Of a DNA stretch of 64,000 bases, positions 137 through 46,900 are shown one piece after another. This DNA comes from Owenia fusiformis (lineage: Eukaryota; Annelida; Polychaeta; Sabellida; Oweniidae): positions 7,306,989 through 7,370,988 of the forward strand of contig CAIIXF020000006.1 of the NCBI GenBank assembly GCA_903813345.2, read 5' to 3'. Positions within the stretch are counted from its first letter, which is position 1; each line of letters opens with the position of its first letter. The position numbers and the translations under genes are program-made. Under the pieces are notes generated by a model, which was not told the DNA's origin, searched no databases, and worked only from the letters and a program-made list of their open reading frames with translations.

Positions 137-3100
137 GTGAGATAAAACTTCAGTGTTTGCATTATAGTGTAGAGAACACGTGTCTCTGTGTTCTCCTGTC
201 TTATCTAATTCGAGTTTGTATTGTTGATGAACATTTTTTGCAGTATTTCCTCCTGTTTACATACATTTCTTCAATAGTTCCCGTTGTTTCTATCAATTTA
301 AACAGCTCGGCAATCTTGGTAGATCTTTCTTATAACCGGAAATGCACCAAACGAAGAACTTGTCAAATTCCAGGGGATTTTGGCAATTTTTTTAATTTGC
401 CAAAATTCGCAAATTTAAAACACTCGCCAAATTAAAGACAAATAAAGCATATAGAATATTATCCCAAAGACTTTTTGATAGTTGATTTTTATCACTACAA
501 AACAAAATCCATCCACCTATCTTAGCTATTCATGTTGTAATAACATGTACTTCATTTTTGGATGAAGACTTATTTTGGACCAAAGTCACTTTAAAAGTGT
601 TCAAAATGGTGAAAACTGCATGTTTTTAAAAGAATTTCTGGTTCAGTAATGCTTGGCGTTACCTCAGAGCTGATTTGAATTAAGAAGGCTCGTTTTTATT
701 TTGCAGATACCAAACATATGTTTGTGGATGTACCCCACAATGAAACAACAGTTAATGTCACAGACCTACAACCTGGAACTAATTATATCATCAAACTTTG
801 GGTGAATGTCACCACAGAAATAGGCAACACAACAGTGTCAAACCTAACAGATTCTGGAAATGTTGTGGTGAAGACTTTGGGATATGGTCCAGATATGCGT
901 AAGTGAAAACACATTCTTAAGTTCTTAAAGGACATTTTTAAATTAATGAATTGATAAATTGTTAATTTGAAAATTCTGGGTTGGATTCTTGTCAAGTGGA
1001 AGTCTACATAATTTGTATCACAACATTTATTTATATGTAAGGCTTTTACAAAGAATACAGTACTCCTCTTCAAGCGTTGATATGTTAAAGTATGTACCAA
1101 AAAAGGTATTTCTGGCCAAACATGGTTGTTGTCAATTACAATCCAATCACTGACTCATGTTTTATTTTAGCATGTGGGTGTGACCCAATCGGTTCTGTGG
1201 ATCAACAGTGTGACAACCACACTGGGCAATGTACCTGTAAACCAAACTTTGGAGGAAAGAACATGTATGACACTGGTGAGGAACACAGAACATGTCGCGG
1301 ATGTTACCATGGCTACTATTTAGATAAGGATGCATGTAAGAAGTGCCATTACAGATGTAACAATGTGACATCATATGGGTTGTGTCGTCTTAAAGGTAAA
1401 GGTTTTTGCTTGTATTTATTTAAGTGTAGTTCATATGCATATTATGAATTTATATGATTACAAGCTAAGAAATAGGTTTATGTCATTTTTATGTCCTTCT
1501 TTTGTTGTTTCCTGACATAAGGAATACATTAAAGATTATGAGTAAATTATGCTAATCAGTCATCCTTGATTGGGAATGTGATCCCCAGCTAAGAGGCTGT
1601 TCTGTTTTGTGGAAATCTCTTGTGTTTTCAATTCAATTAAAATCATTTATTTTTATGAATTACAATTTTCAGGTAAAACTTGATGTTCACTGCGACCCTT
1701 GCATTGCAATTCAAATCATTTATTTACAATTTTCAGAGGGAACTGGTGAAGTTCATTGTGACCCCTGTAAAGAGGGGTCAATGGGGCAGTTTTGTCAGAA
1801 GTGCGCTGACAACTATTATCCAAGACCATCCTACGGAAACCACTATGGCGAACAAGGGTGCCGACCATGTAATTGCAACGGGAATGAGGACAAGACGGAA
1901 CATTTATATTGTGATAAAGCAGGTCTGAGATTTTAACACTTGCCACAGTGTTGCCACTGATGATATATTATTTATACTCACAGTTTTCTTGTGAATAAAA
2001 ATCTTTAAAAAGAAAGTTATATGTTTATGAGAGTACTTTAAATTGACTTTGTTCTTCAATATTCAACAATTGCGAATTTCATGTTTTTCATGTTCGATAA
2101 TGTGGCAAGGCACTTCGATTTTACACTCAACTCTAGATATTTACATCCGCCTGTGGCTACTGTCAAGTGGATATGACCCACACTGAATGTTTTACCACTA
2201 ATTGTAAATCTAATTAGATGAACACTCCACAATTCCATTAAAATAAAGGTCAATGAGAAAAATAAAAATGGGACCTGTTAAGTGTTCACCTTTCAGAGAA
2301 CTTGATACATTTTACTTTATTGTATTTTACATTTTTTTTCCACACAGGGAGATGCACACACTGTGCGTTTAATACAACAGGAGACAACTGTGAAAAATGC
2401 CTGCCAGGATTTCTTGGAGATCCTATCGTTGCCAAGAACTGTACCCATCCTGGTAAGCTTTAATCAACAGTTTGAAGTCGTATTTATTTATTTATATCAA
2501 TATAATGTATTACAAAAGAAGCTCCTCAAAAAATGTCAAATTTAGCATGAAAATGTAAAGGGTAGAGTAAGAAATAAGTAATTTAATAAAGGGAGAAAGA
2601 TAGCATTTAGAGAAAACAGGAGTATATTACCTTAAATATTGCCCTAGCCTAACCTGCAAGACTTTAGACTGCAAGACTGATAAAATATTACTTTACCAGC
2701 ATCGTCACATTTAACAGTATGGGTCCTATTTCTTAGAGCTCTATGATAATATTGTGTATAGATGATTAATCTTAAGTAAATTTTTGTTTTGTTGTTAAAC
2801 TTCAGACCCTCGACACATGATCCCGCATCCACCACACCAGAATGTTGTCCTTATTGGTGCAGCTATTGTAGCGGGAATTGCGCTAGTAATAATTCTTGCT
2901 GTAGTTGGTTACAAAAAATGCCGTCACTGTCGTGGACAGAACAATCAATTCTGGTCAATCAAGCTCCGCGAAGACCAAGAAGCAGTGAGTTTCACCACAT
3001 ATATGGATATGGATTATCGTAGCGTGGATGGACCCCCAGGTAGGGGTTCTGCGGATGCATCAGGATTGTACGACATCAATCGACCAGATGTGCAATTTTC

Positions 3101-3158
3101 CTCTGGGAAAAACCGATTGATTTTAGATCATGATACACACCCAACAGGCCCCATATAA
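1..3158 (+). CDS. MEGF9-like laminin-EGF/FN3 type I membrane protein, 3' part of gene (6 coding exons)
   Basis: The exons are 1-136, 707-898, 1171-1395, 1737-1922, 2348-2452 and 2806-3158. All internal boundaries are GT-AG and phase 1, and together they encode the last 398 residues; the 5' end lies outside the window. In order the fragment has a fibronectin-III domain (about residues 15-108, split by one intron), cysteine-rich laminin-type EGF modules (about 111-281), one transmembrane helix (about 295-317) and a cytoplasmic tail of about 80 residues. The tail motif FWSIKLRED followed by SFTTY resembles, from memory, the membrane-proximal tail of vertebrate MEGF9, a receptor-like protein of poorly known function. 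Several N-glycosylation sequons (NET, NVT, NTT) fit an extracellular region. FN3 domains are not what I expect in vertebrate MEGF9, so this may be an invertebrate variant or another laminin-EGF receptor. Membrane-receptor architecture is certain; the MEGF9 name is moderate. Confidence 0.75.
707..898 (+). CDS. MEGF9-like exon b: FN3 C-terminal half
   Basis: Follows a TTTTGCAG acceptor and ends at a GTAAGTG donor. It encodes the classic FN3 F/G-strand signature VTDLQPGTNYIIKLWVNVTT and carries several N-glycosylation sequons. Confidence 0.8.
1171..1395 (+). CDS. MEGF9-like exon c: laminin-EGF modules
   Basis: Follows a TTTATTTTAG acceptor and ends at a GTAAAG donor. Dense cysteines are spaced as in laminin EGF-like domains (CGCDP...C...TGQCTCKPNFGG...CRGCYHGYY). 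Phase 1 at both ends, so this is a symmetric module exon. Confidence 0.85.
1640..1768 (+). repeat. Tandem duplication of a splice acceptor and exon start
   Basis: The block around 1640-1700 (AATCATTTATTT, then ACAATTTTCAG, then a GATGTTCACTGCGACCC-like stretch) is repeated at 1712-1768 as AATCATTTATTT, ACAATTTTCAG, then GAAGTTCATTGTGACCCC. The intron end and the first codons of exon d are therefore duplicated at a period of roughly 65-70 bases. The upstream copy is diverged. Confidence 0.7.
1737..1922 (+). CDS. MEGF9-like exon d: laminin-EGF modules
   Basis: Follows an AATTTTCAG acceptor and ends at a GTCTGAG donor. It encodes CDPCKEGSMGQFCQKCADNY and a second cysteine cluster (CRPCNCNGN). 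A second, near-identical acceptor lies 65 bases upstream (see the duplication at 1640-1768). The downstream acceptor keeps phase 1 and is preferred. Confidence 0.8.
2348..2452 (+). CDS. MEGF9-like exon e: last laminin-EGF module
   Basis: Follows a CCACACAG acceptor and ends at a GTAAGC donor. Encodes GRCTHCAFNTTGDNCEKC followed by LPGFLGDP, the typical end of a laminin-EGF domain. Phase 1 on both sides. Confidence 0.85.
2806..3158 (+). CDS. MEGF9-like last coding exon: transmembrane helix and cytoplasmic tail
   Basis: Follows an AACTTCAG acceptor. It encodes a short juxtamembrane stretch, a hydrophobic helix (VVLIGAAIVAGIALVIILAV), basic stop-transfer residues (YKKCRHCR) and a tail containing FWSIKLRED. 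It ends at a TAA stop at 3156-3158. Confidence 0.85.
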
Positions 3159-10860: not shown

Positions 10861-11179
10861 TCACACGTTTCAGCATGTGATACAGGAAATATTCTACAAA
10901 AGGTAACACTGTATCATACACGAAAGCGAAGCTTGAGTACTAGTGAGACATTGATACCCGAGTGGAATATTTCCTGTATCACATAAGCTCACCCCAGAAT
11001 AGCCTGACAACGGTAAAGTCAGATACCGTTGTCATAAATGGCGGACATAACCGTCGCTTCAACTGTTTAATCACTTGGTCCTCATTTCATGGTATTTTAT
11101 CGTCGCTAATTCTGTGCATGACAACGGTATTTGACTTTACCGTAGTCAGGCTATTCCGGCGTGAAGCTGAAACGTGTGA
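10861..11179. repeat. Inverted-repeat element interrupted by a MITE in its right arm
   Basis: The left arm (10861-10894, TCACACGTTTCAGC then a GTGATACAGGAAATATTC block) is matched in reverse by GAATATTTCCTGTATCAC at 10966-10983 and GCTGAAACGTGTGA at 11166-11179. The right arm is split exactly by the element at 10990-11163. The outer element is therefore the older one. Confidence 0.75.
10990..11163. mobile_element. MITE with CACCCC...GGCGTG termini, 5-bp target duplication AAGCT
   Basis: 174 bp. It begins CACCCCAGAATAGCCTGACA and ends with the near complement (TGTCAGGCTATTCCGG-type end). It is flanked by AAGCT at 10985-10989 and 11164-11168. Same family as 17907-18573 and the copy ending at 62485. 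No coding capacity, so non-autonomous. A 5-bp duplication is compatible with several superfamilies and I do not assign one. Confidence 0.8.
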
Positions 11180-14346: not shown

Positions 14347-14352
14347 TTTATT
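14347..14352 (-). terminator. Candidate polyadenylation signal of the elevenin gene
   Basis: TTTATT on the + strand reads AATAAA on the - strand, about 200 bases past the stop codon at 14550. Plausible but unproven. Confidence 0.35.
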
Positions 14353-14549: not shown

Positions 14550-14772
14550 TCAGTGTAAAATTCTATTAGCATATGCCACCAATTGAATGAATCGTTTCAG
14601 TGTATTTCTTGCTTGTGTAGCAGTTATCTTGGCATATGGAGATTGAGATTCCCCCTCTCCCCCGAGCTGTGTTTCAGTGTCGCCCTCAGGAACATCCTCG
14701 TATTCGTTCTGTTGTCGTGGTTCATCGTTTGTTAGGTATCCGACGCCATTGATATCCTCCTCTTCACTCCCA
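14550..14772 (-). CDS. Elevenin coding exon 3: C-terminal region and stop
   Basis: Follows a TTTTTCTAG acceptor. Encodes an acidic stretch (SGSEEEDINGVG...NEYEDVPEGD) then a basic C-terminal segment ending RILH and TGA. Function of this region is unknown. Confidence 0.8.
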
Positions 14773-17700
14773 CTAGAAAAACATAACAGATAAAATATGA
14801 AGACCATCTTCGAGGAAGTCATGATCAATTCATGGATTCTGGGTATCTTTAATTAAACAAATCGACCACAAATCACCAAAAGCTATAGTCCGACATGCAC
14901 ATGATGCATGCAACGGGCAAAAGGGAATGCTCAAGATAACACACACGGGGAACATATTTACACTCGGTTCGCAGGGCAGTGCAATTATGTTCTGTGCCTC
15001 AAATTACAACGTACCTTATTCTTTTATAGCTGTTTTCAAACTTTATGTGGAAGTGTTTTGGATCGAATCTCTTGGCAGTGATGCCTCGACATGCAGGAGC
15101 AAATAGATAGCGTCTGAAAGACAAAAAGAAAAACTACTACTAAATTACGATTGTGATACAGAGCTGTCCATCAATGAAGATTTAACTTATCAATTTAATT
15201 TAAATTATCAATTTTATCCCACAATTTAAGAGATAAAATATATGTGGATATGTATCGTTGCAATGCTAAGGGAACAGTTATTCGCATTTCATTTCTTCTT
15301 ATTTATCTTTCCGCTCAAACAGCAAACAGTACAAGTGATAGAATTTCTAATTGTAATCTTGATTTACAACCGGATTACATGAAAAGGTATTCTAATAACG
15401 GTAAAGAGGCTAAAGTATCATTTAGATTTATGTTTTGAAATGTTTCTGTGTTATCGAATTCCTCTTCAATTCTGGGCACGAAAACTGGGTAACCATAATT
15501 CTTTTCTCGATCATAGTGCTCCCAATCAGTCTGGGGCATACACATTTCCACAAATCGGTCAAGTCAAGTAACTTAGTCAACATTCGATATTCGTATGTTC
15601 ATTAGTAGTTACTAAGAATGGTGCCACAATTGAAGTAAACCTCTGGTTAATTATTTTCAATAAACCTCTCAGCAAACGTGTAAATGATAAGTTTGATGTT
15701 CTGTTACATATTGATGAAGCAATCTTTGGGATATGACCTAAATTTCTGACTTTCCACTGTGTCCCTGTATACCCCTACTTCAAAAGATGTATGTTATTTG
15801 TCATTTTTCATTATGAACCAACCATAAATGTATTTTTTCTTGTTTACATACAGAATGAACTTTCTGTTTTTAAATATTGCAAGATGGTACTGCATTTATT
15901 TGTTCATGATATGGAGCAAACAAATGCGTGTCAATTTACACTGTTTATCCTACATACTTATATTTCAAGGGTAGTATTGAAGAATAATCAAGAAAATCCA
16001 TGTTTTCAAATGGATTCATCCTTGTCAAAGAAGGTAAATATGGATATGTGGTTTGAAAAACTAACAACATGTTTCAATTTCTTACAATTCGAGGTTAAAA
16101 CAAATAATTTGAAAGTTGTGATTTCGAATGTAATATCCTACGCAAAGAAATTTGTTGATATTTGTGAATTTTTGTTTTCGGGATGCACATTGCTGGATCA
16201 CAGAACCTTGCCTTGTTCGAGATGCACGAAAAGTGTATTGTTAATACTTGACGTCGTTCGGATATTTGGATGTGATTGACGTTTTCGTTAATCTCCTACC
16301 ACTGTAACTTCCAACTTAATTTTTGGAAGCCAAATGTGATAGTCACGAATTGACATTTAAGTCACGCGTTTATGCATACATCATGTGTGTACATTAACTG
16401 TCGAATACATGCCGACTTACATTTTTATAAATATCCACAGTTAACTCAAATCATCAATTCTAGAAACGGTTTATCATATAACCTGGCGAGTTTAATGTTT
16501 CATTTTAATATATAATTATGGTATCAGATTTGAGTATGATATAAGTCAAAGCTTAAACAAAGCAATAAAATTACGTGAAACCTTTTGAGAAAATTCGAAC
16601 GATTTTTCAAGAATCTTCCTTCAAAGTGTTACCAAAGTGCTCCCCGGGAGTGGAAGTTTCGTCTTGTGTAATCAAAAAAATAGCGGATGGTTTGAATTTT
16701 TGTTTGAGTTTATTGCTTACATCTATAAATTAAAAAAAATATCGCCCAATTGAGACCTACATGCAGATTTTGGTGATCTATCATTATAAAAGGCTAAATA
16801 TTGTGCAAAAACAGGAGTTGACACGCTTTCATTCGGAAATGAAATTTCCTACATAATCGTCGACTCATGTTTAAAAGTCATGAAAACAAGGTTGAACACA
16901 AAACATTGACCCAGTTACTGTCTATTTAGCATGGGATCACTAAGGGAAATATTATTAATGACTTAAATCGTTTACGGTTAAGTTGTATTCCAAGAAACTT
17001 ATCAATTTAGAAGTGCAAAATGTTCAATTTTGCTTTTCAATTATAAAAAATGGCACATGTAGAGAACAACGTTTTCAAAATTATTTAAAACAGAGATATT
17101 TAACAAATGTAACATTGATTGGCATGTGTCAGGGAGTGAATAAGAAGAATATGCATTTGATTCTATATCTTGTTCCCCAGGGAGTTTGTTAAGGAGCGGT
17201 ACAGTGTATATCTTAACGTACTTTTATCATCCCGAACTCAAACATTTCGAATACTTATTTCGAGAACGCTTTGTTGAGAATGGGTTTGAGAAGTACTCAA
17301 AATTAATAAGTTAAAATGTGTATTATCATCTTAATAACCACCTCACAAATTATTTTGGAAATCAAAGATGTACGATTTTTGAGATTTTCATTTTCGAATG
17401 TTGACTTAATTACTTGACTTGACTGAAATAATTACTGGTATAAAATTAATATTTCCCCCAACTATATAAATGAGCCTTTTCAATGTTTTGTTTCTTCTAC
17501 ATTTTTATCTCGAGCATTTTATAAATAGTAAGAATTACAAAAAAACATTAATATTTTCGATTTTAACGTGCTCTTAAATTCTAATGAATGACGATTTACA
17601 AATATTGTTTTCACAATCTGGTTGTTTTATTCATGTTCTACATTATCCCATTCCAAAGGCAGGTGATCGATTGACAATTCTTAGTAGAATAAATGTTTTC

Positions 17701-19492
17701 CAACGTTAATCTCTACACCCTAGGCAACGCTCAAATTGTTTGTGTAATTTTAAGAAAATTAATCAATTAACAAAATGGCAGAGATCCTGGTTGACGACAG
17801 AACTTCAGCTGCATATATATTTTCCCGAGAGTTTTAATTATCCGAGAGAGCATTGAAATTGTAAATGTTACAATAAATGCCATCGTGGATTGATTCTGGG
17901 CCTTTTCACCCCGGAATAGCCTGACAACGGTAAAGTCAGATACCGTTGTCACAAATGGCGGACATAACCGTCGCTTCAACTCTTTAATCACTTGTTCCTC
18001 GTTTCATGGGACTTTATCGTCGTTAATGCTGTGCATGTGTTAAGCTCGTGTGATGATGTATTATATGAAATCCCAATTTCTATCAAATGAGGTCGTGAAT
18101 TGCCACAATATAGCGTCTTCGATATTGTCAATGACAACGGAATCTGAATTTGAAATAATTCACAAAGACAACGGCATATGCTAAGAAGTTAGAACGGACT
18201 ATGGTGGATATATTGCATTGATACATAGGAAAATGACAATGGTAAATAGACACTTTACCGTTGTCTTTACATATACTGTTTTCAAATATTACCGTTGTCA
18301 CCTCAATTTGACATCACATTTGACCCACACCTATCGTTTTATACAGTATCCGCTGTGTCATATTTCGATCGGTAAAATTAAAGCCTTTTTTTCGATGGTA
18401 GAACATATTTAACTATATAATCAGTAGAAAACACTTTGAGTGATTGCAGTACCAAACAAATTTAATCTAGTCGCTCTATTAAACATACAGTTCATGAAAA
18501 TCTAATTGAAGCGACGGTTATGTCCGCCATTTGTGACAACGGTATCTGACTTTACCGCTGTCGGGCTATTCCAGAAATTTTTTTGAAACAAGTTTCAGAA
18601 ATACGTCATACACTGGCTTGGTTGCTCAGGCGTTATACCTTGGGCGTTATATGTGTTTCGTATACATGAAACGGATTCAGATTCATAAAATGCCTCATGT
18701 AGATTTTGTTCGCAGAACAATGCCAAAATCAGCCGAATGATTAGATGATTGGAATTTAAATGGACAACTAAATATGTAACCCAACCTAACTCATGTGTAA
18801 CCTTAGCCGTAACTAAAATAAATAATCAAATAGTGATAAGTAATTAAAAAAACATCAGTACGTAAGTACAAATTGATAAACAATGCTGTTTTTTGCAAGA
18901 AATTTAATCAAAATGGACATTTTATTTAGCTTAAAACCTACATGTGCAATCGATTTTGCTTGGCAAACGAGAGTGAAAAATAAATGACGCAACTTATCCT
19001 AAAGTTTCGATATACCATTTGAAAGGTGAGTTTAACCTTTAAGGATAATGTTATGTTAAATATTTTCCAATTTAATATTATAATTTTAATAATTTTGAGG
19101 GATATCAAAAATACAAGATTTCAACCTTTGTCAAGAGTTATTTTAGTTCAATGAAGGAGATTTATAAAAAATAAGTGCCAAATTAAGTGTGAAAAGTAAA
19201 TATAGTACCCTTTCTCCATGTTATATTGGAAAATATTTTATATTACATTATCTTTAGGTTTAAACTCACTGTGCCTTGACACGGCACATCGTTCTCAGCA
19301 ACGTTCAAATGTTGTCCATGGAAGTTTCAGTTAATCTTTATTACTTTTAAAAAGTGGAATAACAAAATCTCACCTGCAGTCTACGCGCCTTCTCACTGGC
19401 CGACTATCATCTCCTTCCGCGTAACTAAATAAAACCAAAACAGTCAACACCATTATCATTCGCTGCACCAATTCCATCACTCTTTCACCCAT
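14550..19492 (-). CDS. Elevenin (L11)-type neuropeptide precursor, 3 coding exons, 146 aa
   Basis: The coding exons are 19492-19374, 15113-15015 and 14772-14550, with GT-AG boundaries and consistent phase. The protein starts with a short basic N-terminus, then a hydrophobic signal peptide (about residues 12-27). A peptide VDCRRYLFAPACRGITA (37-53) follows, bounded by RRR before and KR after, with two cysteines eight residues apart. This DCRR-F-P-CRG pattern is the hallmark of elevenin, a secreted disulfide peptide that acts through a G-protein-coupled receptor in protostomes. A second candidate peptide, FDPKHFHIKFENSY, lies between KR and KR. The C-terminal part is acidic and ends in a basic amphipathic segment. 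The order signal peptide, mature peptide, long C-terminal region matches known elevenin precursors as I remember them. One intron splits the mature peptide just after the first cysteine. Confidence 0.85.
15015..15113 (-). CDS. Elevenin coding exon 2: rest of mature peptide
   Basis: Follows a CTTTCAG acceptor and ends at a GTACGT donor. Encodes RRYLFAPACRGITAKR and FDPKHFHIKFENSYKRI. Both dibasic cleavage sites after the peptides are in this exon. Confidence 0.85.
15114..19373 (-). other. Large intron of the elevenin gene
   Basis: A 4.26-kb intron. It carries the DNA element at 17907-18573. The longest open frame inside (15791-16279 on +, 162 codons) has no signature I recognise and is probably chance. 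Confidence 0.7.
17907..18573. mobile_element. Non-autonomous DNA transposon, long member of the CACCCCGGAATAGCC family
   Basis: About 667 bp with inverted ends of about 70 bp. The left end has CCGGAATAGCCTGACAACGG then GGCGGACATAACCGTCGCTT; the right end from about 18505 has GCGACGGTTATGTCCGCC then TATCTGACTTTACCG. The inside holds several repeats of GACAACGGTA in both orientations. The right tip is eroded. Same family as 10990-11163 and the copy ending at 62485. Confidence 0.75.
19374..19492 (-). CDS. Elevenin coding exon 1: signal peptide to first cysteine
   Basis: The ATG lies directly after a polypyrimidine-TTTTAG acceptor, so translation starts at the first base of this exon. Codons 1-39 end with RRRVDC plus two bases, then a GTGAGA donor. 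If the exon were unspliced, an in-frame TAG would sit immediately before the ATG, so this start is well supported. Confidence 0.85.
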
Positions 19493-20222
19493 CTAAAACG
19501 GAAATGAATTGAGAATACATTAGTGCAGATTTCAAAATTAGGCAAGGATTTCTGGTCCCCAATTTCAACAAATCTCTCTGCTGACAGAATAAATATCATT
19601 GAAAATGAGATTATTTTGACTTTTCACATCCCATCCTCCTTCCTGTGTCGGATTGTGATATTACCTTATTAGAACTACATTTGAACCTACTTTATCGGAT
19701 TATCTCTAAGCATAGCTTCAAAAGTAAATGCAAAATTTTCCATATCTTGGCTGCCCACGTGGACATCCGCAACAAACAAATACACATACTCCCTAACTCC
19801 CCTATATCAACCGGACGAAGAGAACGTTACACCCTGCCCCCGTGACCTAACTACATGTAGTTCCTAGAAACGTTGTCAATTCAAGCAAAGGAAATAGGCT
19901 CCAAATATCATATTCTTTAGCCGATTCTGAATTTTCAGATAAATAAATAAAAATAGTAACCTAGTTGCAACTTTTATCGACACAGTAATTTAATTCTTAT
20001 CTCAAGCCTTAATCCTAATAATTTTCATGTCGCCACGTTTGAAGGAAACAAAATAAGAACATATAGAGCCGCCCCTATTATTGGCATTTTTATACATTGG
20101 AAATAAAAACTTAAACCTTATCTTAAAGAAATAAATTCAGATTAAAAAATATTTTAAAAAATTTTTTCGCATCTATTTGGTATGTAATATGTATTGTGCA
20201 GAATTAAGTTATTATTACTTAC

Positions 20223-20292
20223 AGACATTCTCTCCTCGTCGTGTCGTATTGTATACTCCTGCCCAGTCGGCACAGTGTTCCTTACTTAAGTG
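20223..20292 (-). other. Predicted non-coding 5' UTR exon of the elevenin gene
   Basis: Ends in GAATGTCT followed by a consensus GTAAGT donor, and lies about 30 bases downstream of a TATA box. The matching acceptor is the TTTTAG immediately before the start codon at 19492. The transcription start near 20290 is an estimate from TATA spacing. Confidence 0.5.
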
Positions 20293-20315
20293 TCCTCTAC
20301 TTACACAATTCAAAG

Positions 20316-20322
20316 TTTTATA
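20316..20322 (-). promoter_or_regulatory. TATA box of the elevenin gene
   Basis: TATAAAA on the - strand, in CTATAAAACTTTG, spaced correctly for a start near 20290 and the donor at 20223. Confidence 0.5.
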
Positions 20323-27649: not shown

Positions 27650-30600
27650 CTCAGACCAGGTTCTCATGAAAATGGATTCATTTAATTTATTTAGTTAAGT
27701 CCCAAGAAAAGCACTGGGCCTCACCAGGAAAAGAAGTAAGTAAGAAACTAGACTGGCAAGACAGGCCACGTAACTGGTACTCCAATGCACATCTACTCTA
27801 TTCAGACGTGAATAAGAAGCCTAAGCATTGTTCTTACGCGAAGGGATTCGCCTAAGGTAAAGAGCTTGTAAAAAGAAGTAAGAAAGAAACTGGAATAAGA
27901 AGCATTTGCCAGGTTTTCTTACGCAAATGGATTTATTTTAAGTTAGTAATTAAGTTCCCTGAAAAGCACTGGGGCTCACGATGAAAAGAAGATGTAAGTA
28001 AGAAACAGGTCACGTAACCGGTACTCTAATTTTGTATCAGACGTGAATTAGAAGCCTATGCAAGGTTCTTATGCAGATGGATTTATTTAAAGTTAGTAAG
28101 TCCCTTGAAAAGAACAAGGCCTCACCAAGAAAAGAAGAAGTAAGTAAGAATTTAGCAAAACAGGCCACGTAACTGATACTCTTATTTTGAATCAGGTTCT
28201 TTCGCAAATTGATTCCTCTAAGCTATCTGAGTCTTAAAAGAAGTCAGAAACTTGCAAAACAGACCACGTAACCGATACTCTTACTTGGTATCAGACCTTT
28301 CCATTACAGAATAAATAAATGTCATGTTTTGCTATCACGCCATCATACCCCAGTACATACAAAGTACTTGGCCACACCATGAAAAGATAAAGTAAATAAG
28401 AAACTGGCAAAACAGGCCACGTAACTGGTACCTTAATTTTGTATCAAACGTGAATAAGAAGCCTATGCCACGTTATTCCGCAAATGGATTTATTTAATTA
28501 AGATAAGTCCCCAGAAAAGTACTGGGCCTCAAGATGAAAGGAAGAAGTATGTAAGAAACCTTGAAAACAGGCCACGTAACTGGTACTTTAATTTTGTATT
28601 AGACATGAATAAGAAGCCTATGCTAGGTTATTTCGCAAATGGATCTATTTCAAATTAGTTAAGTAACTTAAGTCCCCAGAAAAGTACTCGGCATCACCAT
28701 TAAAAGAAGAAGTAAGTAAGAAACTGGCAAAACAGGCCACGTAACTGGTACTCTGATTTTGTATCAGACGTGAATAAGAAGCCTATGCTAGGTTCTTACG
28801 CAAATGGATTTATTTAAAATTAATTTAGTCCAAGAAAGTACCGAGCCCCCACCGTGAATAGAAGAAGTAAGTAAGAAACTTGCAAAGCAGACCTCGTGAT
28901 TGGATTTTATTTAAATGAGTGGAATCGAATTAAAACAAGAAATAGTTAGAGACTGGCAAAACAGGCCACGTAACTGGCAGTCTTATTTTGTATCAGACGT
29001 GAATAAAAAGCCTATACGAGGGTCCTACTCAAATGGATTCATTTCAAGTTAATCAAGTCCCAAGAAAAGTACTGGGCCTCATCATGAAAAGAAGAAGTTA
29101 GAAATTTGCAAAACAGACCTCGTAATTGGATTTTATTTAAAGGAGGGGAATCGAATTGAATCAAGAAATTGTAAGAAACTGGCAAAACAGGCCACGTAAC
29201 TGGTACTCTAATTTTGTATCAGACGTGAATAAGGTTCTTACGCAAATGGATTTATTTAAAAGTAGTTAAGGCCCAAGTAAAGTACTGGGCCTCACCTTGA
29301 GAAGAAAAAGTAAGTAAGAAACTGGCAAAATAGGCCGCGTAACTGATACTCTAATTTTGTATCAGACGTGAATAAGAAGCCTATGCTAGGTTCTTACGCA
29401 AATGGATTTATATAAAAGTAGTTAAGTCACCAGAAAAGTACTCGGCATCACCATTAAAAGAAGAAGTAAGTAAGAAACTGGCAAAACAGGCCACGTAACT
29501 GGTACTCTAATTTTGTATCAGACGTGAATAAGAAGCCTATGCTAGGTTCTTACGCAAATGGATTTATTTAAAAGAAGTTAAGGCCTCAGTAAAGTACTGG
29601 GCCTCACCTTGAGAAGAAGAAGTAAGTAAGAAACTGGCAAAACAGGCCACGTAATTGATTCTCTAATTTTGTATCAGACGTGAATAAGAAGCCTATGCTA
29701 GGTTCTTACGCAAATGGATTTATTTAAAGTTAGTTAAGTCCCCAGTGAAGTACTGGGCCCCACCTTGAGAAGAAAAAGTAAGTAAGAAACTGGCAAAACA
29801 GGCCACGTAATTGATACTCTAATTTTGTATCAGACGTGAATAAGAAGCCTATGCTAGGTTCTTACGCAAATTAATTCATTTAATGACAGTTAAGTCCCCA
29901 GGAAGTAACGAGCCCCACTATGAATAGAAGAAGTAAGTGAGAAATTTGCAAAACAAACCTCGTAATTGGATTTTATTTAAAGGAGTGGAATCGAATTAAA
30001 ACAAGAAATAGTAAGACACTGGCAAAACAGGCCACGTAACTGGTTCTCTTATTTTGTATCAGACGTGAATAAGAAGCCTATGCTAGGTTCTTACACAAAT
30101 GGATTTATTTAAAGTTAGTTAAGTCCCCAGTGAAGTACTGGGCCTCACCTTGAGAAGAAAAAGTAAGTAAGAAACTAGCAAAACAGGCCACGTAACTGGT
30201 ACTCTAATTTTGTATCAGACGAGAATAAGAAGCCTATGCTAGGTTCTTACGCAAATGGATTTATTTAAAGTAGTTAAGGCCCCAGTAAGGTACTGGGCCT
30301 CACCTTGAGAAGAAAAAGTAAGTAAGAAACTGGCAAAACAGGCCACGTAACTGATACTCTAATTTTGTATCAGACGTGAATAAGAAGCCTATGCTAGGTT
30401 CTTACGCAAATGGATTTATTTAAAAGTAGTTAAGTTCCCAGTAAAGTACTGGGCCTCACCTTGAGAAGAAGAAGTAAGTAAGAAACTGGCAAAACAGGCC
30501 ACGTAATTGATACTCTAATTTTGTATCAGACGTGAATAAGAAGCCTATGCTAGGTTCTTACGCAAATGGATTTATTTAAAAGTAGTTAAGGCCCAAGTAA

Positions 30601-33600
30601 AGTACTGGGCCTCACCTTGAGAAGAAAAAGTAAGTAAGAAACTGGCAAAACAGGCCACGTAACTGGTACTCTAATTTTGTATCAGACGTGAAAAAGAAGC
30701 CTATACTAGGTTCTTACGCAAATGGATTTATTTAAAAGTAGTTAAGTCCCCAGTAAAGTACTGGGCCTCACATTGAGAAGAAGCAAGTAAAAAACGGGAA
30801 AAACAGGCCACGTAACTGGTAGTCTAATTTTGTATCAGACGTGAATAGGAAGCCTCTGCCAGGTTCTTATGCCAATGGAATTATTTAAAGTTAGTTAAAA
30901 TAACCAAAAAAGTACTGGGGCTCAACATGAAAAGAAGAAGTTAGAGACTGGCAAAACAGACCACGTAACTGGTAGTCTAATTTTGTATCAGACGTGAATA
31001 AGAAGCCTATGCCAGGTTCTTACGGTATGAGTACCGTAATCCAACGCCAAATTCGAAAATTCAGAACAATACTTTGCACATATGGCGTTCGTGATCAACT
31101 ATAAAACGTTTACCCCCCATAGTGTAATATATCAAAATGTACCTGTTCATATAGGGGTTCGATTGATCTACATCAAATCATACGGAGTCAGGTTACTTTT
31201 TGAGATATCAGCGTCCATTTATTGTAACTCGCGTTTGATACCAATTCCTCAAATCCTCGCCCAAATCCCAAACGCGTAGTAAACATGCTCACGTCGGAAC
31301 TATCGCTATTTTCGTAATTCAAATGAAAGTTGAACTCCTCCTCTTTATTTTTATACCAAATAGTGGCATACTAGGTACCCTAGAAGCCAACTATGGCGTT
31401 ATTTAGAACAAAACTAAAGGTTTTAAATGGGCTATATAGGGGTCATACCTTTTGGCGGATGAATATTGAACCTCATACCTTTATGTTTTGTGACATCACA
31501 CTGATTTTTGTCTCTGCAACTTTTTTTGGCAGAAAATATCATTTTAATTCAAAAATGCATAAAAACGTCGGAACTGGCTGAATATGTGAAAATTTTATCC
31601 ATTCAGGCTAGAAATTGTTAATTTGCCCTACCCCAAATTAAATACGTCTAAATATGCTAGTTTAACTTTGCCACTGTGACGTTACAAATCTAACCTTACT
31701 ATCTCTGAGTTTATTGAAGAAAATGATACGTCTGACAAACAGCTTTCATTCCCTATATGGCACATCTTCTACTAAAAGTTGCATCATTGACTAAATCTAC
31801 GACAAAGGCCCGTGGATTTTGACTGAAATTTGGCCATTTTCGCCCAAATAAAAGTAAATAGCAGTTTCCCCCACAGTTGTATTTTGAAATAAATATTGCT
31901 ACAATGTAGCAATTTAAAAATCACACATGCTTACTGTTTCTGTTGACCTGACACGTGTATCTAGCCTGTAAAAGAGAAAAATCGCTACATTGTAGCAATT
32001 TCTGTGAGATATGGGTCCTCAAAATCATGTAATTTTAGCAAAAAAATGAAGAAATAACCTGCAATTTTATGACAGTTAAGTCCCCAGAAAGTACCGAGCC
32101 CCAACCATGAATAGAAGAAGTAAGTAAGAAACTTGCAAAACAGATCTCGTAATTGGATTTTATTTAAATCAGTCGAATCGAATTAAAACAAGAAATAGTA
32201 AGAAACTGGCAAAACAGGCCACGTAACTGGTACTCTAATTTGTATCAGACTTGAATAAGAAGCCTATGCTAGGTTTTTACGCAAATGGATTTATTTTAAA
32301 GTATTCAAGTCCCCAGAAAAGTACTTGCCCAAAATGAGAAGAAGTAAGTGAGAAACTGGCAAAACAGGCCACGTAACTGGTACTCTAATTTGTATCAGAC
32401 TTGAATAAGAAGCCTATGCTAGGTTTTTACGCAAATGGATTTATTTTAAAGTATTCAAGTCCCCAGGAAAGTACTTGTCCAAAATGAGAAGAAGTAAGTA
32501 AGAAACTGGCAAAACACGTCGCGTAACTGGTACTCTAATTTTGTATCAGACGTGAATAAGAAGTCTATTCCAGGTTTTCACGCAATGGATTTATTTTAAA
32601 GTAGTCAAGTCTCCAGAAAAGTGCTTCGCCTCAAAATGAGAAGAAGTAAGTAAAAAACTGGCAAAACAGGCCACGCAACCGGTACTCTAATTAAATATTG
32701 TATCAGACGTGAATAAGAAGCCTTTGCCAGGTTCTTACACACGTAACTGGTACTCTAATTTTGTATCAAACGTGAATAAGAAACCTACGTCAGGTTCTTA
32801 CGCAAATGGATTTATCTAAAGTAAGTTTAGTCCCCAGAGAAGTACTGGGCCTCGCCATGAAAAGGAAGAAGCAAGTAAGAAACTTGCAAAACAGGCCACG
32901 TAATTGAATTTTATCTAAATCAGTGGAATCTAATGAAAACAAGAAAAAGTAAGAAACTGGCAAAACAGGCCACGTAACTGGTACTCTAATTTTGCCTATG
33001 CCAGGTTCTTACGCAAAAAGATTTATTTAAAAGTAGTTAAGTCCCCCAAAAAGTACTGGGGCTTAACATGAAAAGAAGAAGTAAGTCAGAGACTGGCAAA
33101 ACAGGCCACGTAACTGGTAGTCTAATTTTGTACCAGACGTGAATAAGAAGCCTATGCTAGGTTCTTACGGAAATGGATTTATTTAAAAAAAGTAAAGTTC
33201 CCAGAAAAGAACTTGGCCTCAAAATGAGAAGAAGTAAGAAACTGGCAAATCAGGCCACGTAACTGGTACTCTAATTTTGTATCAGACGTGAATAAGAAGC
33301 CTATGTCAGGTTCTTACGGAAATGGATTTATTTAAAAAAAGTAAAGTTCCCAGAAAAGAACTTGGCCTCAAAATGAGAAGAAGTAAGAAACTGGCAAATC
33401 AGGCCACGTAACTGGTACTCTAATTTTGTTTCAGACGTGAATAAGAAGCCCATGCGAGTTTCTTATACAAATGGATTTATCTAATTAAGTCCTGAAAAAA
33501 TACCGGGCCTCACCAAGAAAAGAAGAAGTTAGTCAGAAACTGGCAAAACAGGCCACGTAACTGGCCACTCTCATTGTGTATCAGGCGTGAATAAGAAGCC

Positions 33601-33605
33601 TATGC
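27650..33605 (+). repeat. Satellite array, unit about 156 bp, roughly 30 units
   Basis: The unit carries AAACTGGCAAAACAGGCCAC, then GTATCAGACGTGAATAAGAA, GGTTCTTACGCAAATGG, a CCCAGTAAAGTACTGGG hairpin and AAGTAAGTAAG. Start-to-start distances such as 29475, 29630 and 29787 give 155-157 bp. Some units carry an extra segment of about 65 bp (CTCGTAATTGGATTTTATTT...GAATCGAATTAAAACAAG), giving units of about 220 bp. Units near the middle are the most alike and those at the left edge the most diverged, as expected for unequal exchange. Not a CRISPR: no short repeats with unique spacers, and the host is eukaryotic. Confidence 0.95.
31024..32062. mobile_element. 1.04-kb non-satellite insertion inside the array
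   Basis: Satellite sequence stops within TTCTTACG and resumes at TGACAGTTAAGTCCCC. The insert starts GGTATGAGTACCGTAATCC. It holds two short open frames (31082-31279, 31393-31581) with no recognised domain and an imperfect repeat of GCTACA(A/T)TGTAGCAATTT near 31900 and 31985. No inverted ends or target duplication seen; type of mobile element unknown. Confidence 0.5.
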
Positions 33606-36201
33606 CGGTTTTTCTCTTACTTTATGATGGTGAACGTGATCAAATTGATTAAAATTTTATAAGGGTCAATGTCATCAAAAAAGGTCAAACGTTCAAAAGC
33701 AAATATTGTTGAGACCCTGTAAACTTTTTATATAGCAAACACAGAAGACATATGTCGGTTTTGTATCTCAGTGTCTTCTTTAGTTCATTGAATGCATCAC
33801 GCTTGCCTTTCTGAAAAGGTGAGAAACACATTCATTCAGTTTTTTTGTTATATTGGTCACGTATAGTATGTTTTTGGGAAATTGCATTTACGATTTTTTA
33901 GAATTATTTCGAAGAAAATATATATGAAAATATATTTCATATAGATAGGATAGGCATTACAAAAGAAAAATGATTGAAATAACATTAGTTTTACTTGATC
34001 TTAATCAATGTAAATATTATGTAAGTAACCATGACAAATAATATTTGAGATTACTCGGAATATTTGCTAATTAAAAGATGTTCGTTGCAATTTAATATCT
34101 TATTCCAAGACCTTAGTAGTCTGGCCTTGCCCAGTAGGTCAGTTTTATGTTCTTGCTTTTTTGCTGGGAAAGACATAAATTATATTAGCATGATAGTTAA
34201 ATCTTAAATTTTTACCCACCAACCACCCACCCAATTATCATTATTGTTTATAACCCTCGATTATAACGTTACTTAGCAATCTTATATCTAAATCATCATG
34301 GTACTCAATGGGTCATTAGTCATGCCATAATCTGTTGCCTTTGGGGAGGGGGATCAAGTTCCATTGAAAACAACGCATTCGACTCTTAAGATAGCTATGC
34401 TCATCTAAGAATATAAAGTGAAATACTAAGGGTAGAGGACTTTGATAAAATTGCCAAAAATTATAACTTTTAACACGTTGTCCAAAAGGGGGCAACGATT
34501 GTTAAACTTTCGGTAGGGAGTGTAACATTGAATAGGTTTTTAGCAATGCATTGACATTGACCTCATTACGAAATATAAAGTTTCTGTGATTTAAAAGAGG
34601 TCGCCTTTCATTCTTGGAAAATAATATATGAGTTGCACTTTGATGTTTTGGTATATGTTGAAATGCCAACTCTTTTTTTTATTCATATTTTCAAGGGTAT
34701 GGGTCAAATGATGAAACTGGCGCAATAAAGCATGAGTAGCAGATGCATTTTCTAAAGCATATTAACGATTTTAAAGATATCATAACATAGTATATTCATT
34801 ATCGTATCATAGGCCAAATGATCGACTTCATTTCATGATAATGCGCAAAATCATAATTTTGGTGCATTAGATGTTTTCTTTTCCATTTTATTTGTTATAA
34901 CTAAACACAATATAACATTAAATCAGCGTTTCTCAGACAACAACCTCCTTTATTATAAAGATACATATCGGATGAGAATCGCAGTATATAACAACTATAA
35001 ATATCTCTATACTATCAACAAAAATCTACATATAATAGCCAGTTACAGGTTACACCGTATTAGATTACAAAGTAATATATACATACTTGATATACATCTA
35101 ATAATAGTCTAATTTCTATAAAGAAATATTCAATTTGTGCGCATTTCTCTAATAAGTATAGTATTCCTCTGAATATGTCTATAGCTGAGGCAAGGAATCT
35201 GACAACTGAGGAAATTTAAACTGAATTGGAAAGTTTGTCTTGTAGCACGTATTTTCATACCAGTATATCAAAAAGAATTATTTTATGCATGCTAATCAGT
35301 AATAATCCACTTAAAAGAAGGGACCTTCATACAGCCCCAAGAGTGAAGAGACGTGATTTTATTTTATTTGTTATAGAATTCCCCCGGAATTCCCGAGCCT
35401 CAGCTTTACGAAGTGGAGGGCATTAATTGTATTTCACTTAAATAAGTCGTACATAATCAATGCTATATAAGGTTTCCATTGATTGGAGGACCATTGGAGG
35501 TCGTTGTAAATTTGACCCTGTCCAAACCAATCTCATAATAATATCGAAGTATTAGTCTTGCACCAAGCCCTTGTGATACAAACATATACCATGTCTTGTT
35601 AGCACTGACATCGTTGAACTGGTTATGGGCAAGGGAATAGATAATAAGGGGACAGTGACACTTGATAAGGTTTGCTTCAGGAAATAACTAATGAGAAGGG
35701 AAGAGACCAGAGGCTTGATACAAGACTGCTTAATAAATGACATGTTTCTCTATGTACCCAGCATAGTGTGTGATTCATTACATGGTATAAGCAATTACAG
35801 CTCAGAGGAATTTCTATAGCTTAAAATGTCGCAAAACAAATTCTGCAAAAATGAACACCGCACTCTATTAAACTTTTTCGATTAAATCAGAAATATTTTA
35901 CTTTCTAAATCAAGATGAAACTAACATAAAAATATATAATACAAAAATCTCTTCAAGATCTATCTTAGGCAATTCAAAAGCTATACTAATACGCCCCCTT
36001 GAAGACGTATTTAATCACGCCTTCTATAAAATGTGAACAATGTCAATATTTCACCCGGGTTATATTCGGGAACAATTTCCCTTGTAATACTATACTAATC
36101 TAGTAATGTGTGACGTTATAACGGCGGGTCGTAATGGACCATAATGGATATTCGATACATTTTGGTGAGTTTTCATGTTCGAATCGTAATATAAACCTCT
36201 G
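33606..36201. other. Intergenic, nothing recognised
   Basis: AT-rich, only short reading frames, no exon or RNA gene identified. Confidence 0.45.
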
Positions 36202-37905: not shown

Positions 37906-40900
37906 CTGCAATTTAAACGTTATTTAAAATATATTTTGAATAGTATCATGATACTGTCAGGGGAATATGGGGACTTGGCTCTCGGTCTCTGGGGACTCGG
38001 TCCGGAGTGAGGTTTACAGACAAGCCTAAGAGATTCATCTTTGATTACCATCTCATCAGTTTGTGTATTAACATTGATCTAACAAATAAAGTAAACCATT
38101 CGCAACAAATCCCACTTTCTATTAAAGAAGTCCGATTTAGAGAATTTAGTCCACCGCATTTTACGCTTGCTATTTACAGCGCTAGTGATAAAATTTGCCA
38201 CTTACCAGATCCAAATGCCAAATAGGCTATGGTTCCGACGAGAAGGATTGCTCCTTTGATATAGAACACAACCTGCCATTGTTCTTGAGTATTCTGAAAT
38301 GAAAAATGTGCAAATATTATACGTATAAATACACCCTCTGATAATATCCCCTAGCATTTTCACCACAGCATCATTTCTCTTTTGAAAGGCAAGAAAGGAG
38401 GGATTTCTTGTAAGATAAGGGGATTGCAATTTTGATTGGGTAGTTGGCATGGGTTATGATCGACATATTCTGATTGGATAGGGAAAGGATTATCTCTTAA
38501 TCCGATTATTTAAGAAGCTATCAAACTAAATAGATGTTCTTAGTTTGGCCTATAATGCCACTAGCCGATTGGGGAGCCATTCGATGTAAATTTAAATATC
38601 ATGAAATAAATAGTTTAACAAATAAAAAAGTGTTTTTATTTCTGGAATTGTGCCAAGAAATACGTTCACAGAAGTTGCCATGGCTTTATGGGTGATAAAG
38701 TTACGAATGATGTATTGAAACAGGAAGACAAACTAATTGGACTTATATAATATTTCTTGGTATGAAATGTTGACGTGTAAAAACAGGATAGTCAGATATT
38801 TAATCATGGTTATTGTGTTTCTTGTCGCGTATGCCCATCATGGTGTGTCTACCGCCAGAGGGACTCGTGAATCATTAAGTCGGTAACGTCGTTTTCGTTC
38901 TGTCACAATGATACACTAAATCAAAACTTGATTCCACATTTCGACGATCAGAACAATGGATAAAGACAAAATGTCATCACCTGGCTACAACTACAAAAAT
39001 GTGACAATTTGTTACAAAACGCCGACACCGAACACACACTGCCTTCGGTGGCTACAGCATTATGATACCATTTCTTTGTGATACCATAATAACTTGCTGT
39101 TATTCGGATACATAATTTAGGGTTTAGGTACATGTAGTTGGTAAAGCTGTGATCATCTTAAATGTGAAATACCCTTGTAAGATGTTCTGTTCAAACTTTA
39201 AAATGTCTCTCTGTGTCCACAGTCAAAGTATAAAATGTCATTCTTTTCAATTGCTTCATTTCGCTTCTTTGAAATAGAGCTCGTCACTTCACATACAGTT
39301 ATTACAATATACAACCAGCCTCTTACCACCCACAGTCGATACAAGTCCGTGCTCAAATGTCATAAAACAATGGCTATCTCTTTACACATGATATAAACGT
39401 AAGTAAACTGACACTAGTTTTTAATTAATAGCGGGAATGAAAGCATATGTTTATGTTGATAATATATGCTAATTTTATATTATAAAGAATAAAAGCTAAG
39501 TTACAGATAGATAACAATCATGTTTCCCCATATGTGTCCTGGATACGTTGTTGGCATTGTTATTATTCATCAACGTTTACGCGTTACACAGCTTAGAAAA
39601 GTAATCCAAGGATTACAATGGAGGTACAGTATACGATGCATTGAATAATAAACTCAAATGGAACATTAAGAAGAAACGTTTATCAACAAGTCATACGTAT
39701 GTTACTTACATCGGGGGTGAGAATTCCTATAAGGTACGGGCACACAAAGCCTGGTATGCAACCGACGCCATTACCAATACCGAACAACAGAGGGGCATAT
39801 TTAGGCGCAAAATCAATATAATTCACTACGAATCCGGCGCCATATTGGCAACCCATAGTGCTGACACCTAGCGTCAACATAACAATCGCTAAAATAGGGT
39901 GATGGCAGTCGATGTGTCCTAAGATTACGATACAAATGGCAGGTACCAATTCACCTGAAAAACAAGCATCTCTTTGTCTACATAATTCCAAAAGAGGATG
40001 GTCAATTGAGCATTTGCCCAATAACAATTTCTTAATTGGTTTATAAATCAGATTAAATAGACGTTCTAGACAGTTCTAAACGTTTTCATCGAATCATTAT
40101 ATTATATTCTGTGTTCAATGTCCATCAATTATTTTAGTTTATTGAGACCCTGCGCTGCCTTACCGATAGTATTGAACAATTTCCTAGCACCAGTTGTTGT
40201 CAATATCTTCTTGGCTCTCAGTAGATCGCTTAGCTGGCCAGACGTGACAACAAACGCCCAAAACAGTAAATATGGGATGGCAGAGAGAAGACCATTCTGA
40301 AAGTAATGTCAAGATAACGCATATTGTTAAGAATTCTTTTTGGTCTAAGCTAACAACGTGAATGATCTGATACCTCTTACTAATACTGTGTTCCAAAATT
40401 GACACATTTTCTCTTCTAAGTTGTAAAAGATATATTAAGAATCTTAATGTATTTCACATTTGAAACTGCTCCTCCAAAGCAGATAAATAAAAAAATCAGA
40501 CAAAAATGTTGTCCCTTTGTAATTGATATCTATTCTTATAATGCCTTTGATTTGCGGAAAAGGAAACAGTATTGTAATTCATATCAGAACCACGAAACAC
40601 GTTTCATATTTCTTTCTTATTGACTTGGCAAAACAACACAATATCAGGAGTTATAGAAACTAGATGAGTCGAGTTCAATGAGAGAGAAAGCATTATTACA
40701 AACATTATTCTAGAATAAATAGCTGGTTTCAGGTGAAATATAAGTGTATATGATCATAACTCTTGGCTCAAGACACTAAAAGCAATTGCAATATCAATAA
40801 ATACACGTACTGTTACATGTAGACTTATCCATGATGGAACATAACATAATGAAACATTTGATCGAGGCTATATTACCGATTTCACATCTAGTTTCAGAAC

Positions 40901-43900: not shown

Positions 43901-46900
43901 GGATGTTCCCAATGCACTGGGAATCCGATGAGCCTGTTTTCAGATAAAATTACACCTAACTCTCTCTGGATCAAAAATGGAGGTCTTTGTCCAGTATTTC
44001 CAGTTGTACCAGCAGAATAAAATACCGGACGCGTTTCTATTACCTGATACTTATAGAACTCAATGTGACTGCCATTCGCCATTTATTAAGCAATAAAAAT
44101 TAATTTACTTCATGGGTGGCAAAATGTTTCTAGTTTCCTGGTGAATGTCGAGTCTCGCATCATACGAATGTAATTTTAGGCGATCTGTCCGCATGGGTTG
44201 CTTACTCTTTGATTTTGTACATACCCATTTGATTTCACTGTTATTTTAGTTCAGAATTTATTTTAAAGAGTCTATGTGTTTGGTTGGTTAATTCAAGTTC
44301 ATTACCTGCGTAACAAAATCCAGTCAATTTTCCACGCTCCAATGGCGGTGCCCAATGAGCCCATAAACAATGCATCGATGGCCACACCACTCCCTAGAAA
44401 ATATAAGAGCTGGAAAGTCACCGGAAAACAATGAGACAGTCGTGTCTATATTTCTATTTCATTTTTATCACACATCCGAGGCCATAAGGCATGTACTACA
44501 AAGGCATAATAGGAGCGGAGCCAGAATCTAGAAGTTGGTGAGTCACAAATGCGAGAGATCATTTCGACTTGCTTTTCACGGTTTCTATTGAAAATATATT
44601 TGCACTAATATTTTTTTTGTAATTTTTTTCTGAGACAGTTGCCTCACTTGCCTCGTGTCAGGCTACGCCCATGCCCAATGGAAGTTTTATTTTCTCAGTG
44701 ATAAAATGTTTAATTATCCGATAAAATATAGGCTATGTGATCAAACATTCTTATTTATCAGTCTTTTATCTAACGCTTTGGACAAGTTCACCTCAATTCA
44801 AGAATCAGTCAAGGCCAAACGATCAACATGCAGGTATTTAGCTAACATTTTATGGGGACTGCTGTCATGTGGGGGCTATTGTGACCCTTGGTGATCCTAT
44901 CAAACGGGTAGATTGTAGTCTAATTAAAAACGAGACATTAACGGTATTGTTTTAATTTGTGAGGTATCAATACGATACAATTTTTCATCATAGCTTCAAA
45001 ATGTTGTCCACATTCATAACAGGGGGTGAAAATCAATTATTTGCCGTGTTCCCTTACATTCTCTCATTTTATAAACCATGAAAAATAGTATAAATGTCAG
45101 AGATTCCTTCTCCTGGTAGTTTCGTCCAGTGTGTTACTTTTTCCTTGAAGAAAGGAAGCACGATCGTACTAAACGAAATGCTGGGAGACTGTCAAAGAGC
45201 CCAGACCATTGTAATGGGCAATGAATGCTCAAGAACCTCTACACCCACTGTCGTTTTGCTCAAAGCCATATCTTTTAGAGAAAAAAGTATTTTACTCTTT
45301 ATGATGAAACTAATTGAAAGCATATCATGTATACGACACCGAATACGATTAATCATGATGAAATATTAATGTATGGAATTTCAAATTTTCTCTTGATCTT
45401 ATAAAATGGTATGGTATACAATGTGAGTGGATTACGCCTGAAATTGGAGAATCGACTCCGTGTTGATTAAATGCACTTATACTAAAACTTTGCCAATTCT
45501 GATGTCGCTAGATGGTGCTATGGTGCTTGACCAGATTTATGTGGATCGATATATTGAAGGTTGGTATTTTTAATTTTTAGGGGGAGGGGATGAGAGTTTA
45601 ATGGTCAAAACAGATGAACATTTATCAGTCCTATGCCTACAGATGTTTATACACTCTCAAACGATCCAGTAGGAGAAGAGGCTGTAAAATGAAGTAGTAT
45701 AGTTTTGAGTAGGGATACTAGCGGTTATTGGTATATTGTTGGTAATTTGGTTTCCTGTATGAATTTTTTCTCCCTTTCTGGCCCAACAAAGCGCCATCTA
45801 ATGTTTGATAAATGAATCGAGGTTTATTCCCAATAGGGAAGGTACCAATCTATCAGTATCGTGAAACATTTCCAAGTTTGGTTAGAACTGATAGGATTTT
45901 TATGTAGAACAGAAATCTTTTAAAACAGGTAGTTTTTTGGTGATAGCTCTCTCCAGGTTCATTTATCTCAAAATTCATGTGATCACTCACTGGGTACTTT
46001 TTCGCCGAGCTAGAGCTTTGCCCCTTATCAAGTTATGATATCGGACGTTATAAAGGTCATGGATGGGATTTTTAACTACAATATTGACATTGAGGAAATG
46101 AAACGACCAAACTAATTTTGGTTTAATCTCATAAATCTATAGGAATAGTTGCATGCGTATTGACTCAGTCAATGACACGGTCAAGAGAAAATAGGGCGAT
46201 CTTTCATTCACATGGTCACTAGTGATCCACTCGATTACGCTGGTTACCGAAACGGTAACACAATGTCGGAACACCGAATGTACGATTTTTCTCTTTTCCT
46301 TATTTCTCACGTTGTAGACAGAATTCCCACGACATTTTTATCACAAAAGTATTTGCGAACACATAGTTCACAAGACAACAGAATCGTTGATTTAATTCCT
46401 CACTTAACTTACATAAACGGTTTTCGAAAAACAGTTAAGATCTGCAATTTTAACCCATGTCGTTTATGTAACTTAAGTGAGGAATTAAATCGACGATTCT
46501 GTTGTCTTCTGAGCTATTTTTTCGCAAACATGTGCATTTTATAAAGCAATCGATACTGATACACGTTTGTGAGAATAGATGTTGGGATTCTACCTACAGA
46601 GCGTGAAATAAAGAAAAAAGAAAAATCGTACCTTCGATGTTTCGACATTTTTTTACCGAAACGAACCGTTTCGGTAACCAGCTTAATCGAGCGGATCACC
46701 AGTGATAGACACAACAGATTGGCATGTGCGTGACATAACGTGTAAGGGTAACCTTTTCAAGTTAATTTTTAACAAGCGGGGTATGCCTACCTGGCCAAGT
46801 CCAATGATAACCCTCAGTACAATGAGGAAGATGTAGCTAGTCCGGGCCGCTATCGGGGAGAGCAGAGTGGCGCACATACAAATAAACATCGCCCAGCCAA

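What the first reader, a model, noticed from the sequence alone, without database searches (positions are those of the whole stretch)
14550..20322. Complete elevenin (L11) neuropeptide gene with an intron inside the mature peptide
Seen: signal peptide, RRR and KR cleavage sites, a two-cysteine 17-residue peptide, three coding exons in phase, a spliced leader exon and a TATA box. The intron falls directly after the first cysteine, so half of the disulfide ring lies on each exon. Known: elevenin is a single-peptide precursor family with its own receptor. Inference: the start codon at the first base of a coding exon means the leader can vary without touching the peptide.
Basis: partly seen in the sequence, partly recalled or inferred. 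Interest (0 to 1): 0.7.

Follow-up and report, generated by a model that had tools for sequence, protein, structure and literature searches.

The report
Ordinary elevenin (L11) neuropeptide gene

Summary
On the minus strand three coding exons (19492-19374, 15113-15015, 14772-14550) join through GT-AG introns into a complete precursor with a hydrophobic leader, a basic site, a two-cysteine elevenin peptide (VDCRRYLFAPACRGITA) and a KR site. The peptide matches published elevenins at 12 of 17 (crayfish) and 11 of 17 (Aplysia) positions. The intron lies in the Arg codon after the first Cys (phase 2). An intron inside the peptide, and two phase-2 introns in the gene, are published elevenin traits (passages in PMC4237046, PMC6585902, PMC9963005), so the title feature is not new. 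Two corrections. First, the predicted leader exon ends in an in-frame ATG (20228, A at -3), so translation would most likely start there (148 aa, not 146), and the inference that the leader can vary freely is not supported. Second, the 17-residue mature form is only one option; forms of 18-23 residues remain possible. The leader exon itself is weakly supported. Verdict: an ordinary orthologue of a known family in an unidentified animal; low interest.

The parts
20317..20322 (-). TATAAA, possible core promoter
   Evidence: one of 58 TATAAA on this strand of the window, so weak alone
20223..20291 (-). predicted exon 1 (start about 30 nt below the TATA box is a guess); ends ATGTCT, in frame with exon 2
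   Evidence: GTAAGT donor at 20222; no transcript evidence
19374..19492 (-). coding exon 2: second in-frame ATG, signal-like hydrophobic leader, propeptide, RRR site, first half of elevenin to Cys and two bases of the Arg codon
15114..19373 (-). phase-2 intron (4260 nt) inside the mature peptide, in the Arg codon after the first Cys
   Evidence: agrees with published descriptions of elevenin genes
17913..18572 (.). 660-nt element with 67-nt terminal inverted repeats (97%), inserted in that intron; related pieces elsewhere in the window
15015..15113 (-). coding exon 3 (99 nt, phase 2 on both sides): second half of the ring, CRGITA, KR site, start of C-terminal propeptide
14773..15014 (-). phase-2 intron (242 nt)
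14550..14772 (-). coding exon 4: acidic C-terminal propeptide and TGA stop
14347..14352 (-). AATAAA, candidate polyadenylation signal

Best explanation
An intact-looking orthologue of the protostome neuropeptide gene elevenin (L11). [quoted passage not shown] The intron inside the peptide is an inherited family trait with no sign of a special role here. Shown: sequence, open frame, splice signals, match to the family. Inferred: expression, splicing, processing, disulfide, receptor.
For: Complete spliced frame. The seven conserved positions listed in a PMC9963005 passage (Vc1 numbering Cys5, Cys14, Gly16, Arg15, Ala11, Ala19, Pro12) are met 7 of 7 when the 19-residue form is laid on that numbering. 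Identity is 12 of 17 to crayfish elevenin (sequence) and 11 of 17 to Aplysia elevenin (sequence), counted. Long pattern 1 in the window, 0 in 100 random windows. [quoted passage not shown] an intron 'similar' to the phase-2 intron of NPF and a characteristic splice site inside the peptide, often needed for identification (PMC6585902); three exons and two phase-2 introns in the Lautoconus elevenin gene (PMC9963005). The residues whose change to Ala hurt Aplysia receptor activation most (Gly17, Arg16, Pro13, Asp5, Phe11; PMC10175484) all have their counterparts here.
Against: No Pfam, NCBIfam or PDB sequence match to elevenin (0 relevant hits), though I did not establish that any of these libraries holds an elevenin model and the peptide is short. 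Of the nine residues that PMC10175484 calls highly conserved, 7 of 9 are identical here; the other two are conservative changes (Ile4 to Val, Val18 to Ile), both also found in the crayfish peptide. The precursor outside the peptide was not compared with any known precursor (no such sequences were at hand); print says it is not conserved. No transcript, peptide or receptor data. Species unknown, and no whole genome held.
Confidence: 0.96

Rival explanations
1. The gene is as described but translation starts at the exon 2 ATG, with a wholly noncoding first exon that differs from the one predicted (another promoter, or a trans-spliced leader joined at 19493).
For: Exon 1 has only hexamer-level support; the acceptor lies immediately before the exon 2 ATG.
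Against: A TATA box, a perfect GTAAGT donor and an in-frame upstream ATG with A at -3 lie in suitable order, the donor 730 nt upstream of exon 2.
Confidence: 0.3
2. A decayed or unexpressed copy (pseudogene) of elevenin.
For: A transposon-like element sits in the large intron.
Against: Frame, splice-site ends, peptide, both basic sites and a candidate poly(A) signal are intact; inserts in a 4.3-kb intron are ordinary.
Confidence: 0.03
3. A venom or salivary peptide derived from elevenin, as in cone snails, rather than the endogenous neuropeptide.
For: Cone snails have elevenins in venom, and a raphitomid snail expresses two in salivary glands (passages).
Against: Only one copy of the distal-exon pattern in the window; the peptide is about as close to a crayfish neuropeptide as to that of Aplysia; nothing in the sequence points to venom; species unknown.
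Confidence: 0.02

Closest known systems
Elevenin / L11 of Aplysia californica (P06518; PMC10175484)
   Same: One two-cysteine peptide near the signal peptide, 8 residues between the cysteines, D-C and FAPACRG, precursor of similar length (151 against 148 aa); 11 of 17 peptide positions identical
   Different: IDCTRFV against VDCRRYL and CRGVSA against CRGITA; N-terminal RPR against RRR
Elevenin of the crayfish Cherax quadricarinatus (PMC5141488)
   Different: Shorter precursor (129 aa); gene structure not seen
Elevenin gene of Lautoconus ventricosus as described in PMC9963005
   Different: Here a possible additional 5' exon contributes Met-Ser through a phase-0 junction. Caution: the genome paper cited there, PMC8152183, has no occurrence of 'elevenin' in its main text

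Membership tests
Elevenin (L11) neuropeptide precursors | Two cysteines with 8 residues between them, Gly two residues after the second Cys | tested here: met
   C RRYLFAPA C R G; definition from PMC9963005 passages and PMC10175484 section 5
Elevenin (L11) neuropeptide precursors | Highly conserved Arg15, Ala11, Pro12, Ala19 (Vc1 numbering) | tested here: met
   4 of 4 present when laid on the cysteines (sequence; list)
Elevenin (L11) neuropeptide precursors | Nine highly conserved residues of the Aplysia comparison (C6, C15, G17, R16, P13, D5, F11, V18, I4) | tested here: inconclusive
   7 of 9 identical; V18 is Ile and I4 is Val here, as in the crayfish peptide
Elevenin (L11) neuropeptide precursors | Signal peptide followed by one peptide and basic cleavage sites | tested here: met
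   Hydrophobic stretch MIMVLTVLVLF, RRR, and KR after GITA; judged by hydropathy only, no signal-peptide program was available
Elevenin (L11) neuropeptide precursors | Phase-2 intron inside the peptide-coding sequence | tested here: met
   TGC AG|A by GT-AG junctions; published trait; the exact codon in other species was not seen, as figures and supplements were not available
Elevenin (L11) neuropeptide precursors | Disulfide-bridged peptide activates an elevenin receptor | not testable with these tools
Elevenin (L11) neuropeptide precursors | Transcribed and spliced as modelled | not testable with these tools
   No RNA data for an unnamed animal; no genome held

The most novel reading that the evidence does not exclude
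Exon 3 (99 nt, phase 2 on both sides) is a symmetric exon that carries the distal half of the disulfide ring, so skipping it keeps the frame and would yield a secreted precursor with one cysteine and no elevenin. Alternative splicing at this conserved junction could therefore switch the peptide off, or swap its second half, without touching the rest of the gene.
Probability: 0.03. Interest if true: 0.45.

Novelty: new member of a known kind. Interest (0 to 1): 0.12.

Why it matters
It adds one cleanly resolved elevenin gene with its conserved intron, useful for annotating the species and as another example for searches, since the split peptide makes elevenin hard to find in genomes (PMC4237046 and PMC6585902 passages). 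It opens no long-standing question.

Tried and rejected
Family libraries and PDB sequences gave nothing for the precursor or the peptide (PDB); the one PDB row (an esterase, E 1.6) is noise. No whole genome is held, so paralogues outside the window, the receptor and the species could not be sought. A second copy of the distal exon, as an alternative half-ring, was looked for in the window: FAP.CRG occurs only once, and by eye none of the 6 places where C-x8-C-x-G occurs within one frame resembles elevenin (4 of the 6 have a stop inside the motif). Idea of a gene nested in intron 2: the longest open frame of the window (180 codons, 15737-16276 plus) lies there, but 4 of 200 random windows have one as long or longer and its only Pfam row is below cut-off (15.9 against 27 bits); rejected. 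Trans-spliced leader: considered, cannot be tested here. A literature search for six short fragments of elevenin-like sequence found 4 papers, none holding YLFAPACRG. Elevenin with alternative splicing: 22 papers hold both terms, 10 were listed, and I opened none of them for that question.

Limits of the reading: figures are not held and supplements could not be looked up, so the intron position in other species' elevenin genes was taken from sentences, not from alignments. The exon map of the Aplysia gene is in a figure that I could not see. Two oyster peptides are printed in PMC4200219; I compared only that of Pinctada, not that of Crassostrea gigas, which is printed there without the first Cys.

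Full report
What is there. On the minus strand between 20228 and 14550 four segments join through GT-AG introns into one frame. The first, at 20228-20223, is only predicted. Exon 2 (19492-19374) holds a hydrophobic leader, a short propeptide, RRR and VDC plus two bases of an Arg codon. Exon 3 (15113-15015) completes the Arg codon and gives RYLFAPACRGITA, KR and a spacer. Exon 4 (14772-14550) gives an acidic C-terminal propeptide and TGA. Introns measure 730, 4260 and 242 nt. An AATAAA lies at 14352.

Beyond chance. The pattern [FYW].FAP.CRG..A[KR]R occurs once in six frames of the window and in none of 100 first-order Markov windows; FAP.CRG occurs once in the window and once in all 100 windows. 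That these residues are followed by a dibasic site, and join in frame to a VDC half preceded by a signal-like segment (best 11-residue hydropathy 3.13), makes coincidence untenable, although the VDC half was not tested separately.

What it is. The peptide agrees with published elevenins: 12 of 17 positions with the crayfish peptide and 11 of 17 with the Aplysia peptide (sequences read). The 19-residue form agrees at 12 of 19 positions with Aplysia and 8 of 19 with the divergent Pinctada peptide; the C. gigas peptide of the same paper, printed without the first Cys, was not compared. The seven conserved positions named in PMC9963005 (passages) are all met; of the nine named in PMC10175484 (passages) 7 are identical, and the other two are Val for Ile4 and Ile for Val18, as in the crayfish peptide. 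Pfam, NCBIfam and PDB sequence searches found no relative, not surprising for so short a conserved stretch but recorded as a negative.

The intron. It falls between the second and third base of the Arg codon after the first cysteine (TGC AG|A, phase 2). This is not a novelty. [quoted passage not shown] PMC9963005 (passages) gives three exons and two phase-2 introns for a cone snail elevenin gene, as in coding exons 2 to 4 here; the genome paper it cites has no occurrence of 'elevenin' in its main text. I did not see figures or supplements, so identity of the exact codon across species is inferred.

Correction on the start codon. ATG TCT is in frame with exon 2, with no stop between, and has A at -3, while the exon 2 ATG would have T at -3 after splicing. 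It is the only ATG between 20347 and 20172. If exon 1 is real, the first AUG gives 148 residues (MSMGERV...), and leader changes can alter the N terminus. If exon 1 is not real, nothing is known of the leader. In both cases the hydrophobic leader and elevenin are unchanged. Exon 1 support is modest: 3 of the 135 TATAAA on both strands of the window, this one included, have GTAAGT within 60-180 nt downstream.

Correction on the mature peptide. Cleavage after RRR gives 17 residues, as predicted for crayfish (PMC5141488 passage). But the Aplysia peptide predicted and used in receptor assays keeps RPR before IDC (20 residues; section 5 of PMC10175484), elevenin-Vc1 starts with Arg1, two residues before Ile3 (passages), and trimming residues outside the ring reduced Aplysia receptor activity. 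Forms of 18, 19, 22 or 23 residues are therefore open; masses are.

How it works (inferred from the family). Secretory entry, one disulfide, convertase cleavage, release, activation of a G-protein coupled elevenin receptor. In Aplysia the disulfide is required and Gly17, Arg16, Pro13, Asp5 and Phe11 matter (PMC10175484 passages); the equivalents of all five are present here. Its role in this animal is unknown; reported roles elsewhere include body colour in a planthopper and, as a suggestion from expression, digestion in decapods (passages).

Surroundings. Plus strand 1089-1933 holds laminin-type or attractin-type EGF segments; the nearest PDB sequence of 1089-1454 is laminin beta-2 (3.8e-10), so the gene is not named with certainty. 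Minus strand 46686-47027 is an MFS segment nearest in the PDB to sialin and vesicular glutamate transporters. 55049-55399 plus is a reverse-transcriptase fragment. No tRNA or Rfam family at gathering score is found. No whole genome is held; the peptide suggests only a protostome, and the crayfish and Aplysia peptides are about equally close, so I do not name a phylum.

Verdict. An ordinary elevenin orthologue; the striking feature is a known family trait. The most novel reading not excluded is regulated use of the symmetric exon 3 (99 nt, phase 2 on both sides), whose skipping keeps the frame but removes half of the ring; there is no evidence for it, and its core pattern FAP.CRG has no second copy in the window.

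Noticed in passing
17913-18572; related pieces at 10997-11157 and about 61037-62485: A 660-nt element with 67-nt terminal inverted repeats (97% complementary) sits in the elevenin intron; pieces 79-95% alike recur elsewhere in the window, so it looks like a nonautonomous inverted-repeat transposon family.
   Followed up: partly
1089-1933 +: Laminin-type or attractin-type EGF exons (Pfam EGF_laminin 9.2e-7; EGF_LMN_ATRN 8.2e-5, below its cut-off; nearest PDB sequence laminin beta-2) of a plus-strand gene; an open frame at 2799-3155 with a hydrophobic stretch may be its membrane end.
   Followed up: partly
46686-47027 - (perhaps also 52839-53168 - and 39686-40075 -, without Pfam match): Exon of an MFS transporter closest in the PDB to sialin and vesicular glutamate transporters.
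   Followed up: partly
28361-33610: Large tandem arrays, mostly of units of about 149-156 nt, with gaps between them.
   Followed up: no
47840-48912 and 50466-51141: Further tandem arrays: units of about 148 nt, and 24 copies of a 28-nt unit.
   Followed up: no
55049-55399 +: Reverse transcriptase fragment (Pfam RVT_1, 1.5e-11), likely a retrotransposon remnant.
   Followed up: no
15737-16276 +: Longest open frame of the window (180 codons), inside the elevenin intron on the other strand; 4 of 200 random windows reach that length and Pfam gives no match above cut-off.
   Followed up: yes
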